DNA from: an uncultured Solirubrobacterales bacterium
GTDB lineage: Bacteria > Actinomycetota > Thermoleophilia > Solirubrobacterales > 70-9
Assembly (NCBI GenBank): GCA_903939845.1
Contig: CAJAIJ010000041.1
Span: 1 to 42,854 of the forward strand
DNA: 42,854 nucleotides
Reading direction: 5' to 3'
Positions 37,690 through 42,783 of this stretch are shown here, in pieces; the stretch's first letter is position 1; each line of letters begins with the position of its first letter. The notes beneath the pieces were generated by a model that did no database searches, was not told the DNA's origin, and saw only the letters and a list, made by a program, of their open reading frames with translations. The position numbers and the translations under genes are program-made.

Positions 37690-38865
37690 TCAGTTCACCC
37701 GCTCGACGAGCATCGCCTCGCCCTGACCGCCTGCGACGCACATCGTCTCGATGCCGAACTGGTGGTCGTCGGTCTCCATGACGTTCAGGAGCGTGCCCAT
37801 GATCCTCGCACCGGTCATCCCGAACGGGTGGCCGAGAGCGATCGCACCGCCGTGCGTGTTGAGCTTCTCCATCGGAATTCCGACCTCCTCGGAGATCGGG
37901 ATCACCTGAGCTGCGAAGGCCTCGTTCAGCTCGACCGTATCGATGTCCTCGACCTTCATTCCGGCCCTGTCGAGGAGCTTCTGGACCGCCCTGATCGGGG
38001 CGACACCCATGTACTCGGGCTCGTTGCCGGCCGTGGCCGAGGTGATGATCTTTGCCCGCGGAGTGACCCCGAGCTCCTTCGCCTTGGTGTCGCTCATGAT
38101 CAGGACCGCTGCGGCTCCGTCATTGAGCGGGCAGGAGTTGCCTGCGGTGACCCCGCCACCGCCGAACGCCTCGGGGAGCTCGCCGAGCTTCTCGACGGTC
38201 GAGCTGGCCCGCGGGCCGTCGTCCTTCTCGACCACGGTGCCGTCGGGCAGGGTGACCGCGACGATCTCGCGATCGAAGAAACCGCTTTCCTGGGAAGCGA
38301 CTGCCAGCTCCTGGGAACGCTGTGCGTACTCGTCCATGGCCTCGCGACTAACCCCGTACTTGTTGGCTACGTTGACGGCCGTCAGACCCATGTCGATGTA
38401 GGCGTTCGGCTGACCGTCGTTTCCGATCAGCTCCTCGTGCTGATCCTCCTCACCGGCTGCACGGGCCCCCGCTATCTCGCTCCGGGCGTTGAACTGGCTG
38501 ACGAACTCGACTCCGGAGGCGATGTAGACGTCGCCCTCACCGTTCTTGATCGCGTTGGAGGCATGACGGATGGCGTCGAGGCTCGAAGCGCAGTAGCGCG
38601 AGATGGTGACGCCGGTCGTGGCCTGAGTGAGGTGGTTCGAGAGAAGGACGAGGATCCTCGCCAGGTTGTAGGCCTGCTTGCCCTGCGGCATGCCGACCCC
38701 GCAGAAGACTTCTTCGACGGTCTCGGGGGACACCTCGGGGTTCCTCTCGAGGAGCTGGTCGATGACGAAGGCGCCGATGTCGTCGGGCCTCAGCTGAGAG
38801 AGGGAACCTTTGAAGGCGCGTCCGATCGGAGTCCTGAGTGTGTCGACGATCACTGCTTCGGGCAT
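37690..38865 (-). CDS. Thiolase (acetyl-CoA acetyltransferase, FadA-like)
   Basis: A 391-residue thiolase that cleaves 3-ketoacyl-CoA in beta-oxidation. The nucleophilic Cys is in TISRYCASSLDAIRHA, then VELNEAFAAQV, the catalytic His in GGAIALGHPFGMTGAR, and the second Cys in ETMCVAGGQGEAM. It differs clearly from the first thiolase in this window (SRYCASS against NKVCASG), so the two are not recent duplicates; this one fits the degradative, lipid/steroid-type group better. AAGGAG lies nine bases before the ATG. The 122-base gap to the divergent gene holds a possible promoter (TTCACT, 17 bases, TAACGG on the minus strand), which I rate weak. Confidence 0.92.
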   Translation of the reverse strand: MPEAVIVDTLRTPIGRAFKGSLSQLRPDDIGAFVIDQLLERNPEVSPETVEEVFCGVGMPQGKQAYNLARILVLLSNHLTQATTGVTISRYCASSLDAIRHASNAIKNGEGDVYIASGVEFVSQFNARSEIAGARAAGEEDQHEELIGNDGQPNAYIDMGLTAVNVANKYGVSREAMDEYAQRSQELAVASQESGFFDREIVAVTLPDGTVVEKDDGPRASSTVEKLGELPEAFGGGGVTAGNSCPLNDGAAAVLIMSDTKAKELGVTPRAKIITSATAGNEPEYMGVAPIRAVQKLLDRAGMKVEDIDTVELNEAFAAQVIPISEEVGIPMEKLNTHGGAIALGHPFGMTGARIMGTLLNVMETDDHQFGIETMCVAGGQGEAMLVERVN

Positions 38866-38987: not shown

Positions 38988-39443
38988 ATGAACCAGCCGA
39001 GACCCACCCAGCCCGGCAGGCCGCCGACCGGCCCCGGTTCCGCCAGACCCCCTCAGGCCTCTTCCACCCCGTCACAGGGCGAAATCGTCAATCGACTCGA
39101 CGGCCAGCGCGGATGGCTCAACGAACTCGACAGATCGCTGAAGAAGCGATCGATCATCGCCCTGATTCTCACCTGTCTGGCAATCGGTGCCGGAGCCGCC
39201 GCCATCTACATCTCCCTGACGAAGAACAGCGACGGCGAACGGATCGACGCACTCGAGACCCGGATCGAGAACCTCGAGGCGGCAGCAGGCGTCGCAGCCG
39301 AACCGAATGATGCGCTGCCCGAGGGTTCGGACCCCGCTACCGGGACCACCCTTCCGGACACCGGGGTCACCCTGCCCGAAACGGTCGTCCCCGGAACGGA
39401 GTCCATCCCCGAGGCCGCCGAGACGACCCCGACGGTCCCCTGA
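38988..39443 (+). CDS. Single-pass membrane protein of unknown function
   Basis: A 151-residue protein I do not recognise. The N-terminal 32 residues are Pro/Gly/Ser-rich and soluble; EIVNRLDGQRGWLNELDRS precedes one membrane helix (SIIALILTCLAIGAGAAAIYI, about 55-75) with a KKR stop-transfer cluster on the cytosolic side, so the C-terminus is outside. Directly after comes a short coiled-coil stretch (RIDALETRIENLEAAA), then a Thr/Pro/Glu-rich, disordered tail with repeated TTLPDTG and TLPET units; LPDTG and LPET resemble sortase signals, but no second hydrophobic helix and basic tail follow, so anchoring by sortase is unlikely. A TAGATT box lies 9 bases before the ATG. The fusion-protein gene follows after 23 bases and is probably co-transcribed. 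Confidence 0.75.
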   Translation: MNQPRPTQPGRPPTGPGSARPPQASSTPSQGEIVNRLDGQRGWLNELDRSLKKRSIIALILTCLAIGAGAAAIYISLTKNSDGERIDALETRIENLEAAAGVAAEPNDALPEGSDPATGTTLPDTGVTLPETVVPGTESIPEAAETTPTVP

Positions 39444-39466: not shown

Positions 39467-40867
39467 GTGCCGGTCGAGGAAACACCCCCACCTCCGGAGC
39501 GGATCACCGCCGGCGAGACGGTCAGCTACGGCGAGACCGAACATCCCGGGGTCCGGCTTCTGACCATCGACCGCCCCGAGAAGATGAACGCGATCGGCGC
39601 CGGGGAGGCGGCCGGACTCGAGCGAGCCATCGATGAGTTCCGCCTCGACCCCGATGCCCGGGTTCTGGTGATCACCGGGGCCGGCAGCGATGCCTTCTGC
39701 GCCGGGGCAGACCTCCACGCCGTCGCTGCCACCTCCGGCAAGGGCGAGGCAGCGCCGCTGTTCATCCCTGAAGATCCCGCCAACCCGAAGTCGCCCGAGG
39801 CCGGGAACATCGGTCCGACCCGGATGCACGACCTCTACAAGCCCGTGATCGCCGCGATCAACGGCGTGGCATACGCCGGCGGCCTCGAGTGGGCCTGCTT
39901 CGCACACCTCCGGATTGCCGACCGCCATGCCTCCTTCGGGGTGACCTGTCGCCGCTGGAACGTCGGTCTCGGTGACGGAGGCACCCAGAGACTGCCCAGG
40001 ATCATCGGCCTCGGCCGGGCCCTGGACCTGATCCTCACCGGAAGGGTGATCGGTGCCCAGGAGGCCGAGAGGATCGGACTCGTCAACGAGGTCACCCCGA
40101 GCGGGGCCTGTCTCGACCGGGCACTCGAACTCGCGTCGGCCTTGGCCGACCTCCCCCAGGGTGCGATGAGGACCGACCTCGAGGCGACACTGCGCGGCTC
40201 CGGACTGCCGTTCGAAAGCGGCCTGGAAGTCGAGCGGGAGTGCTTCGATCGCCTGCTGGCCGACCCCGAACTGATCGAGGGCACCAGCCGTTTCCTCGAC
40301 CGTGACCATCCCGACAGGAGGTCCGGTGCTCCGCCCCTCCACCTCCCGGGGAGGGCGTGGTCCTTCGCCCGTCAGGCCCACTCCGGTCAGCGCGATCGTC
40401 TCGGAAGAGACTTCATCGAACATCCGTCCGGAGTGGCCGAACTCTGCTCCGAGATCGGAGATGAGGACGCCTTCGTCGCCGCCTACCTCCACGACACGGT
40501 CGAAAAGGGCGACGCCTCCTTCGACGAAGTCGAAGCGATCTTCGGGCCGCGCGTCAGACAGATGGTCGAAGTGCTGGGCCAGGACGGATCAATCATCGAG
40601 CGCAAGGCCCGTCGGGATGACCATCGATCCCGGGTGGCCGCGAGCGACCCGATCACGATCGCGGTCTACGTGAACGACCGACGGGAGGGCATTCGCGCCC
40701 TGACGGCCCTCGTCGAGGCCGGGTCCGATCCGGCCGGCTTCGGCGCAGACGAGCGGGTCGAACAGTGGCGCGGAGACCTCGCCGCCGTATCGGAGACGGG
40801 CACCGATCCCGCACTTCTCGAGTCCATGCGAGCCGAGCTCGACCGGCTCCAGGCCCTCCTCGGGTGA
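39467..40867 (+). CDS. Crotonase fused to a SpoT/MESH1-like HD domain
   Basis: A 466-residue two-domain protein. Residues about 18-280 are a crotonase (enoyl-CoA hydratase/isomerase): DAFCAGADL and INGVAYAGGLEWACFAHLRIAD give the oxyanion hole and Glu141, but the second catalytic Glu of hydratases is replaced (FGVTCRRWNVGLGDGG). Residues about 296-466 are an HD domain of the RelA/SpoT hydrolase/MESH1 type: ARQAHSGQRDRLGRDFIEHP, AAYLHDTVEKGD (His342, Asp343, Glu346) and VYVNDRREGI (Asp404). Two residues usual in (p)ppGpp hydrolases differ: the Asp after Glu346 is Lys347, and the Asn after Asp404 is Gly408. No stop or in-frame start codon separates the domains. A strong AGGAGG with an out-of-frame GTG sits at the junction (40316-40328). 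The function of the fusion is unknown. Confidence 0.8.
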   Translation: MPVEETPPPPERITAGETVSYGETEHPGVRLLTIDRPEKMNAIGAGEAAGLERAIDEFRLDPDARVLVITGAGSDAFCAGADLHAVAATSGKGEAAPLFIPEDPANPKSPEAGNIGPTRMHDLYKPVIAAINGVAYAGGLEWACFAHLRIADRHASFGVTCRRWNVGLGDGGTQRLPRIIGLGRALDLILTGRVIGAQEAERIGLVNEVTPSGACLDRALELASALADLPQGAMRTDLEATLRGSGLPFESGLEVERECFDRLLADPELIEGTSRFLDRDHPDRRSGAPPLHLPGRAWSFARQAHSGQRDRLGRDFIEHPSGVAELCSEIGDEDAFVAAYLHDTVEKGDASFDEVEAIFGPRVRQMVEVLGQDGSIIERKARRDDHRSRVAASDPITIAVYVNDRREGIRALTALVEAGSDPAGFGADERVEQWRGDLAAVSETGTDPALLESMRAELDRLQALLG

Positions 40868-41113: not shown

Positions 41114-41512
41114 GTGACCGAACATTCGCATCGGGGCTGGATCGGGAGGCACAAACCGGTTCAGGGAGCCCACGCTCCGAAAGGCATCGTTGGACGTGAG
41201 TTCATCACGACGGTCACCTTTGGCCGCATGGAGGCGGTCAGCCTCGCCCACTCCGTCATCTATCTGGCCCTCCTGATCTCGGCCTTCGCTCTCGGGGGAC
41301 CTCAGCCCTGGACTTTCATATTCGGGCTATCCCACGGCCTGATCTGGATCGGAATGTCACTGGCCAGCGTCACGGCAGTCTGGTTCGGAGTGATCAACCT
41401 CAGGCTCGCCGTGGCTATCGCCCTGCTGGGCTGCATCGCGCCCTTCTTCGGATCGGCGGAATTCATTCGGCAGAACCGGAGCCGCCGCGAAGCCGGGGGG
41501 ACGGAGGCATGA
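41114..41512 (+). CDS. DUF3817-like small membrane protein
   Basis: A 132-residue protein with three hydrophobic helices after a soluble leader: MEAVSLAHSVIYLALLISAFA, FIFGLSHGLIWIGMSLASVT, and LRLAVAIALLGCIAPFFGSA, then a basic tail (RQNRSRREAGG). The EAVSLAH in the first helix, the GLSHGLIW with a membrane His, and the late PFFGSAEF pattern fit the DUF3817 family, whose role is unknown. The GTG at 41114 with GAG nearby is the longest start; a shorter form from ATG 41228 would omit the leader and lacks a ribosome site. Its stop overlaps the amidohydrolase start in ATGA. The 246 bases before it (40868-41113) contain no gene I can support. Confidence 0.65.
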   Translation: MTEHSHRGWIGRHKPVQGAHAPKGIVGREFITTVTFGRMEAVSLAHSVIYLALLISAFALGGPQPWTFIFGLSHGLIWIGMSLASVTAVWFGVINLRLAVAIALLGCIAPFFGSAEFIRQNRSRREAGGTEA

Positions 41513-42783
41513 CCTCGCGCTCCCTGGCAGTCTCCGGGGCCCTGCTCGAGGGCAAGACCACCGACCTGCTCGCGATCGATGGCCTGATCGCCGAGATAGG
41601 ACCGGGACTCGACCTGTCGCGGGCCGAAGAGGTGATCGATGGCACCGACCTGATCCTCGCGCCATCGCTGGTCAACGGCCACACCCATGCCGCGATGGCG
41701 ATCCTCAGAGGCCGTGGCGGGGACCTCCCGCTAGACCGTTGGCTACAGGAGGTGATCTGGCCGATCGAGAAGGGCCTCTCGGGCGAGGACATCTACTGGG
41801 GCACCAGACTGGCCTGCATCGAGATGGCCCGGAACGGGGTCTCCGAGTTCTGGGACATGTACTGGCATTCGCCCGATGCGGCTCGGGCAGTCAGAGACGC
41901 CGGGCTCCGGGTGGTGGCTGGACCGGTCGTCCTCAGCCTCCCGGGTGCCGCAGACCCGGCCAAGGACGAGGCCGCCCTGATCGAGGATCTCGACAGGATC
42001 GGGGAGATGGGGCCGCTGGTCCGACCGGCCATCGCCCCTCACGCGATCTACACGGTCGGTCCGGACCGTCTCCAGCGTCTGGCCGACCTCGCCGCCGAGC
42101 GAAAGCTCCCGATCCACATCCACCTTTCGGAGACAGAAAAAGAAGTAGACGACTGCGTGTCCGAGCACGGCCTGCGTCCGGCTGCCTACATCGATCGGCT
42201 CGGCCTCCTCGGCCCCGAAACCCTGCTCGCTCACGGCGTCTGGCTCGACGATGATGAACTGGATCTGGTCGCCGAACGGGGTGCGACCGTCGTAACCAAC
42301 CCGGTTGCGAACCAGAAGCTGGCGGTCGGTCGAACCTTTCCCCTCCCCCGCGCTCTGGAGGCCGGGGTATCGATCGGACTCGGTACCGATGGCCCGGCAT
42401 CGAACGACTCGCTCGACCCGCTCTCCGACCTCAAGGTCCTTGCTCTCGCCCAGCGAAACGCGGCCAACGACGCGGCCGTCCTGGGATCGGGCGAGGCCTG
42501 GCGGATCGCCACCGGGCAGGCCTCGAACCTGCTTCGCCCCTACCGGCCGCTCGAACCCGGCTCGCCGGCCGACTTCATCCTCCTGAACGGGAAGGCACCT
42601 GAGCTCGCCACCGGGGAGCTCACCTCCAATCTGGTCTTCGCAGCTTCAGGTGCTGCCGTCGACACGCTGGTCGTGGATGGACGGCCGGTGAGCCGCCATC
42701 GCGAGGTGTCGGGGTCGGACGAGGTGCTCGAGAGGGTGTCGGTCATCGACTCCCGTCTCGTCGACGGTTCGGGTCGGGACTAG
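41509..42783 (+). CDS. Amidohydrolase, MTA/SAH deaminase group
   Basis: A 424-residue metal-dependent deaminase of the amidohydrolase superfamily. Sites in order: LVNGHTHAAMAIL (HxH metal ligands), GVSEFWDMYWHSPDA, HAIYTVGPDRL, IHIHLSETEKEVDDC (third His and catalytic Glu), LLAHGVWLDDDELDL (fourth His), and GLGTDGPASNDSLD (metal Asp). This pattern is that of 5'-methylthioadenosine/S-adenosylhomocysteine deaminases (MtaD) and related 5'-deoxyadenosine deaminases. A link to SAM-dependent methylation would suit either the methyltransferases or radical-SAM by-products, but other substrates cannot be excluded. The ATG overlaps the previous gene by four bases (ATGA) with GGAGG just upstream. The stop shares CTAG (42780-42783) with the convergent M23 gene. 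Confidence 0.88.
   Translation: MTSRSLAVSGALLEGKTTDLLAIDGLIAEIGPGLDLSRAEEVIDGTDLILAPSLVNGHTHAAMAILRGRGGDLPLDRWLQEVIWPIEKGLSGEDIYWGTRLACIEMARNGVSEFWDMYWHSPDAARAVRDAGLRVVAGPVVLSLPGAADPAKDEAALIEDLDRIGEMGPLVRPAIAPHAIYTVGPDRLQRLADLAAERKLPIHIHLSETEKEVDDCVSEHGLRPAAYIDRLGLLGPETLLAHGVWLDDDELDLVAERGATVVTNPVANQKLAVGRTFPLPRALEAGVSIGLGTDGPASNDSLDPLSDLKVLALAQRNAANDAAVLGSGEAWRIATGQASNLLRPYRPLEPGSPADFILLNGKAPELATGELTSNLVFAASGAAVDTLVVDGRPVSRHREVSGSDEVLERVSVIDSRLVDGSGRD

What the first reader, a model, noticed from the sequence alone, without database searches (positions are those of the whole stretch)
39467..40867. Crotonase fused to a SpoT/MESH1-like HD hydrolase domain
One frame of 466 codons encodes both domains. 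The HD part keeps His319, His342, Asp343, Glu346 and Asp404 but has Lys347 and Gly408 where (p)ppGpp hydrolases have Asp and Asn, so substrate may have changed. A CoA-enzyme joined to a nucleotide-phosphate hydrolase could link acyl-CoA status to alarmone or NADPH turnover. I know of no described protein with this layout.
Basis: partly seen in the sequence, partly recalled or inferred. Interest (0 to 1): 0.7.

Follow-up and report, generated by a model that had tools for sequence, protein, structure and literature searches.

The report
Crotonase fused to altered SpoT-like hydrolase
One genus of uncultured bacteria makes a single protein that joins a fatty-acid (CoA) enzyme to a relative of the alarm-signal hydrolase SpoT/MESH1 whose guanine-binding residues are gone, which suggests that this hydrolase domain now handles something other than the alarm signal, perhaps CoA itself.

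Summary
It is not an assembly error: 13 of 18 genomes of the genus carry it, the other 12 at 52-59% identity, with a conserved linker. No fusion was seen outside the genus in 232 order, 399 class and 396 phylum genomes. Two same-genus genomes hold an HD-only gene in the same slot; trees favour one fusion, then loss of the crotonase half there. In 26 of 32 family genomes outside the genus the HD is a separate gene. All 15 HDs of the genus keep the metal site and Glu81, but all lost Arg44, Asp82 (Lys in 14) and Asn148. The lysine sits where MESH1's inactivating D66K does. (p)ppGpp hydrolysis is therefore unlikely. I think the HD was retargeted to a non-guanine 3'-phosphate ligand, most plausibly CoA; MESH1 was reported in 2026 to be a CoA 3'-phosphatase. 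A non-catalytic sensor is the main rival. New variant of a known kind.

The parts
39467..40867 (+). Crotonase-HD fusion gene, 466 aa
39545..40315 (+). EchA5-like crotonase domain (residues 27-283); Glu141 kept, Cys161 at the FGxxE position
40316..40348 (+). Linker (residues 284-294) with Pro290, Leu291 and Pro294 in 13 of 13 fusions
40349..40864 (+). HD_4 (SpoT/MESH1-type) domain; His319, His342, Asp343, Asp404 and Glu346 kept; Asp310, Lys347 and Gly408 in place of Arg44, Asp82 and Asn148
38988..39443 (+). Small protein, by reading one membrane segment then a coiled coil; upstream neighbour found in 12 of 12 other fusion loci and in both HD-only loci
37690..38865 (-). Acetyl-CoA acyltransferase (thiolase), divergent neighbour; found in 12 of 12 other fusion loci and in both HD-only loci
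41114..41512 (+). Small membrane protein, weak DUF3817 match (below cut-off); found downstream in 7 of 12 other fusion loci, within the short flank held
41509..42783 (+). Amidohydrolase; best NCBIfam models are N-ethylammeline chlorohydrolase and adenosine-type deaminases, all below their cut-offs; found downstream in 6 of 12 other fusion loci, within the short flank held

Best explanation
A genuine two-domain protein of one Solirubrobacterales genus, formed when a crotonase gene was joined in frame to a small SpoT/MESH1-like HD gene that is resident at this locus in the family. Shown: the fusion, its restriction to the genus in the samples searched, the intact metal-site residues, and the loss of three residues tied to guanine binding and the ED motif. 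Favoured by the trees: one fusion, then loss of the crotonase half in one sub-lineage. Inferred: the HD is no longer a (p)ppGpp hydrolase and has been retargeted to a 3'-phosphorylated adenine nucleotide, most plausibly the CoA or acyl-CoA handled by the attached crotonase, which it would trim at the 3'-phosphate (to dephospho-CoA) or, if catalytically dead, bind as an on-board sensor.
For: One frame in 13 of 18 genus genomes, conserved linker. His53, His77, Asp78, Glu81 and Asp144 (RelSeq numbers) kept in 15 of 15 HDs, but Arg44 0 of 15, Asp82 0 of 15 and Asn148 0 of 15; 27 separate HDs of other genera keep Arg44 in 24, Asp82 in 14 and Asn148 in 18. Arg44 and Asn148 contact guanine in RelSeq, and R44Q is cited there as abolishing hydrolysis (PMC13299517, two passages read). 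MESH1 removes the 3'-phosphate of CoA and of acyl-CoAs, and its authors suggest that bacterial SAH/SpoT may do the same (PMC13221220, abstract and two sections read). Covalent joining to a CoA enzyme is the genomic hint that this one does. Purifying selection on the HD and its presence without a crotonase in two genomes argue for a function of its own.
Against: The Lys at the Asp82 site equals D66K, described as catalytically inactive in MESH1 (alignment with 5vxa and 3nr1), so hydrolysis is not assured. There is no direct evidence for CoA: fusion does not prove a shared ligand, no CoA-binding feature was tested in the HD, and G007 and G016 show that the HD does not need this crotonase. The crotonase half itself lacks the second Glu, so its own reaction is unknown. 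Lys at this site also occurs in 5 of 27 separate HDs of the family that keep Arg44 and Asn148, so that change is not specific to the fusion. Loss of guanine contacts would equally fit another adenine nucleotide such as (p)ppApp or 3',5'-ADP.
Confidence: 0.42

Rival explanations
1. The HD is a non-catalytic (pseudo-enzyme) metal- and nucleotide-binding domain that regulates or scaffolds the crotonase.
For: Lys at the Asp82 site reproduces the inactive MESH1 D66K, which still bound NADPH in its crystal; three active-site residues gone in 15 of 15; the HD evolves faster than the crotonase in the same 7 pairs.
Against: The metal-ligand positions and Glu81 are invariant in 15 of 15 HDs that are as little as 36% identical to the window's; two genomes keep the HD without this crotonase to regulate.
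Confidence: 0.28
2. It is an NADPH 2'-phosphatase like MESH1 and XccSAH, tying redox to beta-oxidation.
For: MESH1 and a bacterial SAH are reported to hydrolyse NADPH (PMC9765508, passages read); a pntB (NAD(P) transhydrogenase beta) gene lies about 7 kb away in the window.
Against: D66K inactivates MESH1; XccSAH is a poor NADPH phosphatase (kcat/Km about 360 per M per s); another group saw little or no NADPH hydrolysis by Mesh1 enzymes under its conditions (PMC7644958, passages read). Whether the pntB linkage is conserved was not tested.
Confidence: 0.12
3. It is still an alarmone hydrolase, of (p)ppGpp or of the adenine alarmones (p)ppApp.
For: Family membership: HD_4 in 15 of 15; nearest solved structures by sequence are Rel and MESH1. 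Loss of guanine contacts does not exclude (p)ppApp.
Against: Arg44, Asp82 and Asn148 all lost in 15 of 15, while canonical Rel with an intact site is present in the genus.
Confidence: 0.14
4. Assembly or sequencing artefact joining two genes.
For: An AGGAGG at 40316-40321 followed by an out-of-frame GTG at 40326 looks like a start signal at the junction.
Confidence: 0.02

Closest known systems
Small alarmone hydrolases (SAH; MESH1 / Mesh1-L group), HD_4
   Same: HD_4 by profile, metal-ligand positions and Glu81; best PDB hits by sequence are Rel 6s2t for the alignment and MESH1 5vxa for the window HD
   Different: Fused C-terminal to a crotonase; Arg44, Asp82 and Asn148 replaced in 15 of 15 genus HDs. 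[quoted passage not shown] the word 'enoyl' does not occur in its main text.
EchA5 / PRK08259-like crotonases
   Same: Best PDB hits 3qka, 4qfe and 4z0m, which share the CRRW...DGGT stretch; best NCBIfam PRK08259 at 234 bits, under its 273 cut-off
   Different: Carries an HD domain; groups with unfused copies in G099, G223 and G055
MESH1 as CoA 3'-phosphatase (PMC13221220)
   Same: Same domain family; a CoA ligand would explain the crotonase partner
   Different: The CoA link here is inferred from the fusion only; the Lys at the Asp66 site differs from active MESH1

Membership tests
SpoT/MESH1-type HD (Pfam HD_4) | Profile match above the curated cut-off | tested here: met
   50.1 bits against 27.2 for the window HD; HD_4 reported at E up to 0.01 in 15 of 15 members
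SpoT/MESH1-type HD (Pfam HD_4) | Metal ligands His53, His77, Asp78, Asp144 | tested here: met
   15 of 15 each; their role is recalled, with Asp78-Mn2+ seen
(p)ppGpp hydrolase / small alarmone hydrolase | ED motif (Glu81-Asp82) | tested here: not met
   Glu81 15 of 15; Asp82 0 of 15, Lys 14 and His 1
(p)ppGpp hydrolase / small alarmone hydrolase | Guanine-contacting Arg44 and Asn148 | tested here: not met
   Arg44 0 of 15, Asn148 0 of 15; role from PMC13299517
(p)ppGpp hydrolase / small alarmone hydrolase | Mn2+-dependent hydrolysis of (p)ppGpp | not testable with these tools
   Needs protein
Crotonase superfamily | ECH_1 profile | tested here: met
   139 bits against 27
Enoyl-CoA hydratase (two catalytic Glu, recalled as Glu144 and Glu164 of the rat enzyme) | Both Glu present | tested here: not met
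   First Glu (Glu141) 13 of 13; Cys161 at the FGxxE position in 13 of 13. Of the other order crotonases fetched, 19 of 19 distinct readable ones outside this clade have Glu there; L023, L025, L028 and L178 were not readable at that place
CoA 3'-phosphatase | Release of phosphate from CoA giving dephospho-CoA | not testable with these tools
   Needs an assay; inferred from the fusion only

The most novel reading that the evidence does not exclude
A bacterial MESH1-like HD that has abandoned alarmones and acts on the 3'-phosphate of CoA or acyl-CoA, physically tied to the crotonase that uses those CoA esters, so that one protein both processes an acyl-CoA and marks or retires its CoA carrier as dephospho-CoA. 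It would be genomic evidence for the bacterial CoA-phosphatase role that the 2026 MESH1 paper leaves for future work.
Probability: 0.22. Interest if true: 0.82.

Novelty: new variant of a known kind. Interest (0 to 1): 0.58.

Why it matters
Substrates of SpoT/MESH1-type HD domains outside alarmone metabolism are an open question: NADPH was proposed and contested, and CoA was reported for MESH1 in 2026. A natural fusion to a CoA enzyme, with natural separate-gene relatives that differ at Arg44, Asp82 and Asn148, gives a ready panel to test which residues choose guanine, NADPH or CoA. It also shows a natural lysine, in 14 of 15 HDs of the genus, at the site of the laboratory-made inactive D66K.

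Tried and rejected
Artefact of assembly: rejected on 12 further genomes. A separate origin of the window's fusion: disfavoured, because its crotonase is sister to that of G008 inside the fused clade (98/95), its HD is sister to the HD-only genes (100/99), and the linker is shared; a later transfer of crotonase plus linker into an HD-only line is not formally excluded, the base of the genus HD clade is unresolved and no species tree was built. Internal start for the HD: none before Val323. Fusion elsewhere: none seen. These used a profile of the whole fusion with E-value cut-offs of 1e-60 or 1e-78 and scored only the best 7 or 4 candidates a genome, so an unrelated crotonase-HD fusion could be missed; class and phylum were sampled. 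The first genome-contig scan with a single HD found nothing; the second, by alignment, rests on one peptide pattern and kept 80 of 273 relatives. AlphaFold model: HD confident (ten-residue means 79-96 from residue 301), crotonase half poor (many under 50), mean 62.5, so domain contacts cannot be read. Foldseek: the 50 rows shown were crotonases. Neighbours of the unfused crotonases of G099 and G223 could not be read reliably by longest-ORF choice. G004, G011 and G015 stay unresolved: G015 has an HD tail with Gly at the Asn148 place at a contig start; at E 1e-40 the amidohydrolase is not found in G004 and G015 and only a 33% match in G011. Downstream synteny is not universal: G006 (L009) has an ORF that reads like an ABC-transporter ATPase there.

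Rows dropped: from the crotonase tree repeat copies of loci, the partial or unreadable L023, L025, L028 and L178, the short piece of L014, and also L169 and L171; from the separate HDs, hits that I judged by eye to be Rel or Rel fragments, and those weaker than about 1e-20.

Full report
Observation. The frame window:39467-40867 (+) is 466 codons from a GTG to a stop. Pfam places ECH_1 at residues 27-282 (139 bits) and HD_4 at 297-371 (48 bits, cut-off 27.2). The only in-frame start codon between 40310 and 40460 is that of Val323 at 40433, so a whole HD cannot be translated alone here.

Reality of the fusion. In a search of 61 genomes (the window's own, 17 of the same genus, the rest of the same family and order) 12 others of the genus carry a one-frame homologue (L002-L013), 52-59% identical to the window (A1). 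Census of the genus, 18 genomes: 13 fused; 2 (G007, G016) with an HD-only gene of about 190 codons in the same slot (in G016 the gene is cut by the contig end); G015 only an HD tail at a contig start; G004 and G011 no such HD found. The thiolase and the small coiled-coil gene lie upstream in 12 of 12 other fusion loci; the small membrane gene follows in 7 and the amidohydrolase in 6 of those 12, within the 1.5 kb or less held downstream. With a fusion profile none was seen outside the genus among 232 genomes of the order, 399 sampled from the class and 396 sampled from the phylum; these totals include genus members.

Origin. Of the 32 genomes of the family outside the genus, 26, in 9 of 11 genera, have a separate HD gene at E about 1e-20 or better. 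I fetched 27 such loci, picked by eye as not being Rel or Rel fragments. Fourteen of 27 have the same amidohydrolase within a few kb, 11 of 27 have an MBL-fold (Lactamase_B_2) hydrolase gene just upstream on the same strand, and 4 of 27 have the thiolase; several loci are cut by contig ends. So the HD is a resident gene of this locus, to which the crotonase was added. The HD tree (42 rows) makes the genus HDs one clade (100/100) with the window's HD sister to the two HD-only genes (100/99); deeper order inside the genus is open. The crotonase tree (33 rows) makes the fused crotonases one clade (99/98) next to unfused copies in G099, G223 and G055 (96/92), with the window sister to G008 (98/95); the program warned of long branches among other rows. 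With the shared linker (Pro290, Leu291, Pro294 in 13 of 13) this favours one fusion and a later loss of the crotonase half in the G007/G016 line. No crotonase match of G007 or G016 is in the list, which ends near E 6e-23; both assemblies are 87% complete.

Active sites. In an alignment of 124 HDs the 15 of the genus keep RelSeq His53, His77, Asp78, Glu81 and Asp144 in 15 of 15, but Arg44 is Gly (9) or Asp (6), Asp82 is Lys (14) or His (1), and Asn148 is Gly (13) or Ser (2). Separate HDs of other family genera: Arg44 24 of 27, Asp82 14 of 27, Asn148 18 of 27. Canonical Rel HDs of the same genus: Arg44 and Asp82 13 of 13, Asn148 12 of 12 resolved. In a pattern scan blind to the residue after the Glu, of the 80 loci kept (of 273) 68 of 69 outside the genus have Asp and one has Lys, against Lys in 11 of 11 inside it. 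RelSeq Arg44 and Asn148 bind the guanine, and R44Q is cited as abolishing hydrolysis (PMC13299517, passages). The Lys aligns with D66K of MESH1: the window HD reads HDTVEK like 5vxa, while 3nr1 reads HDTVED, and D66K is described as catalytically inactive (PMC9894426, passage). Against an inert domain stand the invariant metal site and dN/dS of 0.14-0.31 in 8 pairs. The crotonase keeps the first Glu (Glu141) but has Cys161 at the FGxxE position in 13 of 13 fusions, in the three unfused kin, and in the three EchA5-like PDB chains aligned; 19 of 19 distinct readable crotonases of the order outside this clade have Glu. That these are the two catalytic glutamates of enoyl-CoA hydratase is recalled.

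Mechanism. MESH1 was reported in 2026 to dephosphorylate CoA at the 3' position and to accept acyl-CoAs, and its authors say bacterial SAH/SpoT may do likewise (PMC13221220, abstract and two sections). CoA, unlike ppGpp, has adenine and a 3'-monophosphate, and it is the handle of crotonase substrates. A domain that has lost its guanine contacts, kept its metal site and been joined to a crotonase is best explained as retargeted to such a ligand. Whether it hydrolyses it or only senses it cannot be decided here; the lysine argues for sensing, the conserved metal site for catalysis. The neighbouring amidohydrolase resembles N-ethylammeline chlorohydrolase and adenosine-type deaminase models below their cut-offs, which fits adenine chemistry only weakly. 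NADPH as a MESH1 substrate is contested: one study saw little or no hydrolysis under its conditions (PMC7644958, passages).

Literature. Three searches for a crotonase or enoyl-CoA hydratase joined to a SpoT-type or ppGpp-hydrolase domain found no paper on it (none; two papers, unrelated by their listing; none). The library is open-access only, so absence in print is not shown. Novelty is of architecture and active site, within a known domain family.

Noticed in passing
window:31083-32498 (-): NAD(P) transhydrogenase beta subunit (PNTB, 599 bits), about 7 kb from the fusion; conservation of the linkage was not tested.
   Followed up: no
window:40316-40328: AGGAGG followed by a GTG in another frame exactly at the domain junction; possibly a relic of the separate HD gene's start, not tested in relatives.
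   Followed up: partly
L178:5612-6508 (-) and 10 further family loci: MBL-fold (Lactamase_B_2, distantly like RNase Z and cyclic-nucleotide phosphodiesterase) gene directly upstream of the separate HD gene in 11 of 27 loci, where the crotonase domain stands in this genus.
   Followed up: partly
L014:743-2130: The unfused crotonase of G055 is split over two frames in this assembly.
   Followed up: no
L008:342-752 (+): Short ORF downstream of the G014 fusion that reads like a PIN-domain (VapC-type) protein; motif recalled, no search made.
   Followed up: no
L137:6001-6534 (+): Hyphomicrobium small HD with the same Lys at the Asp82 site but, by reading, Arg44 and Asn148 kept.
   Followed up: partly
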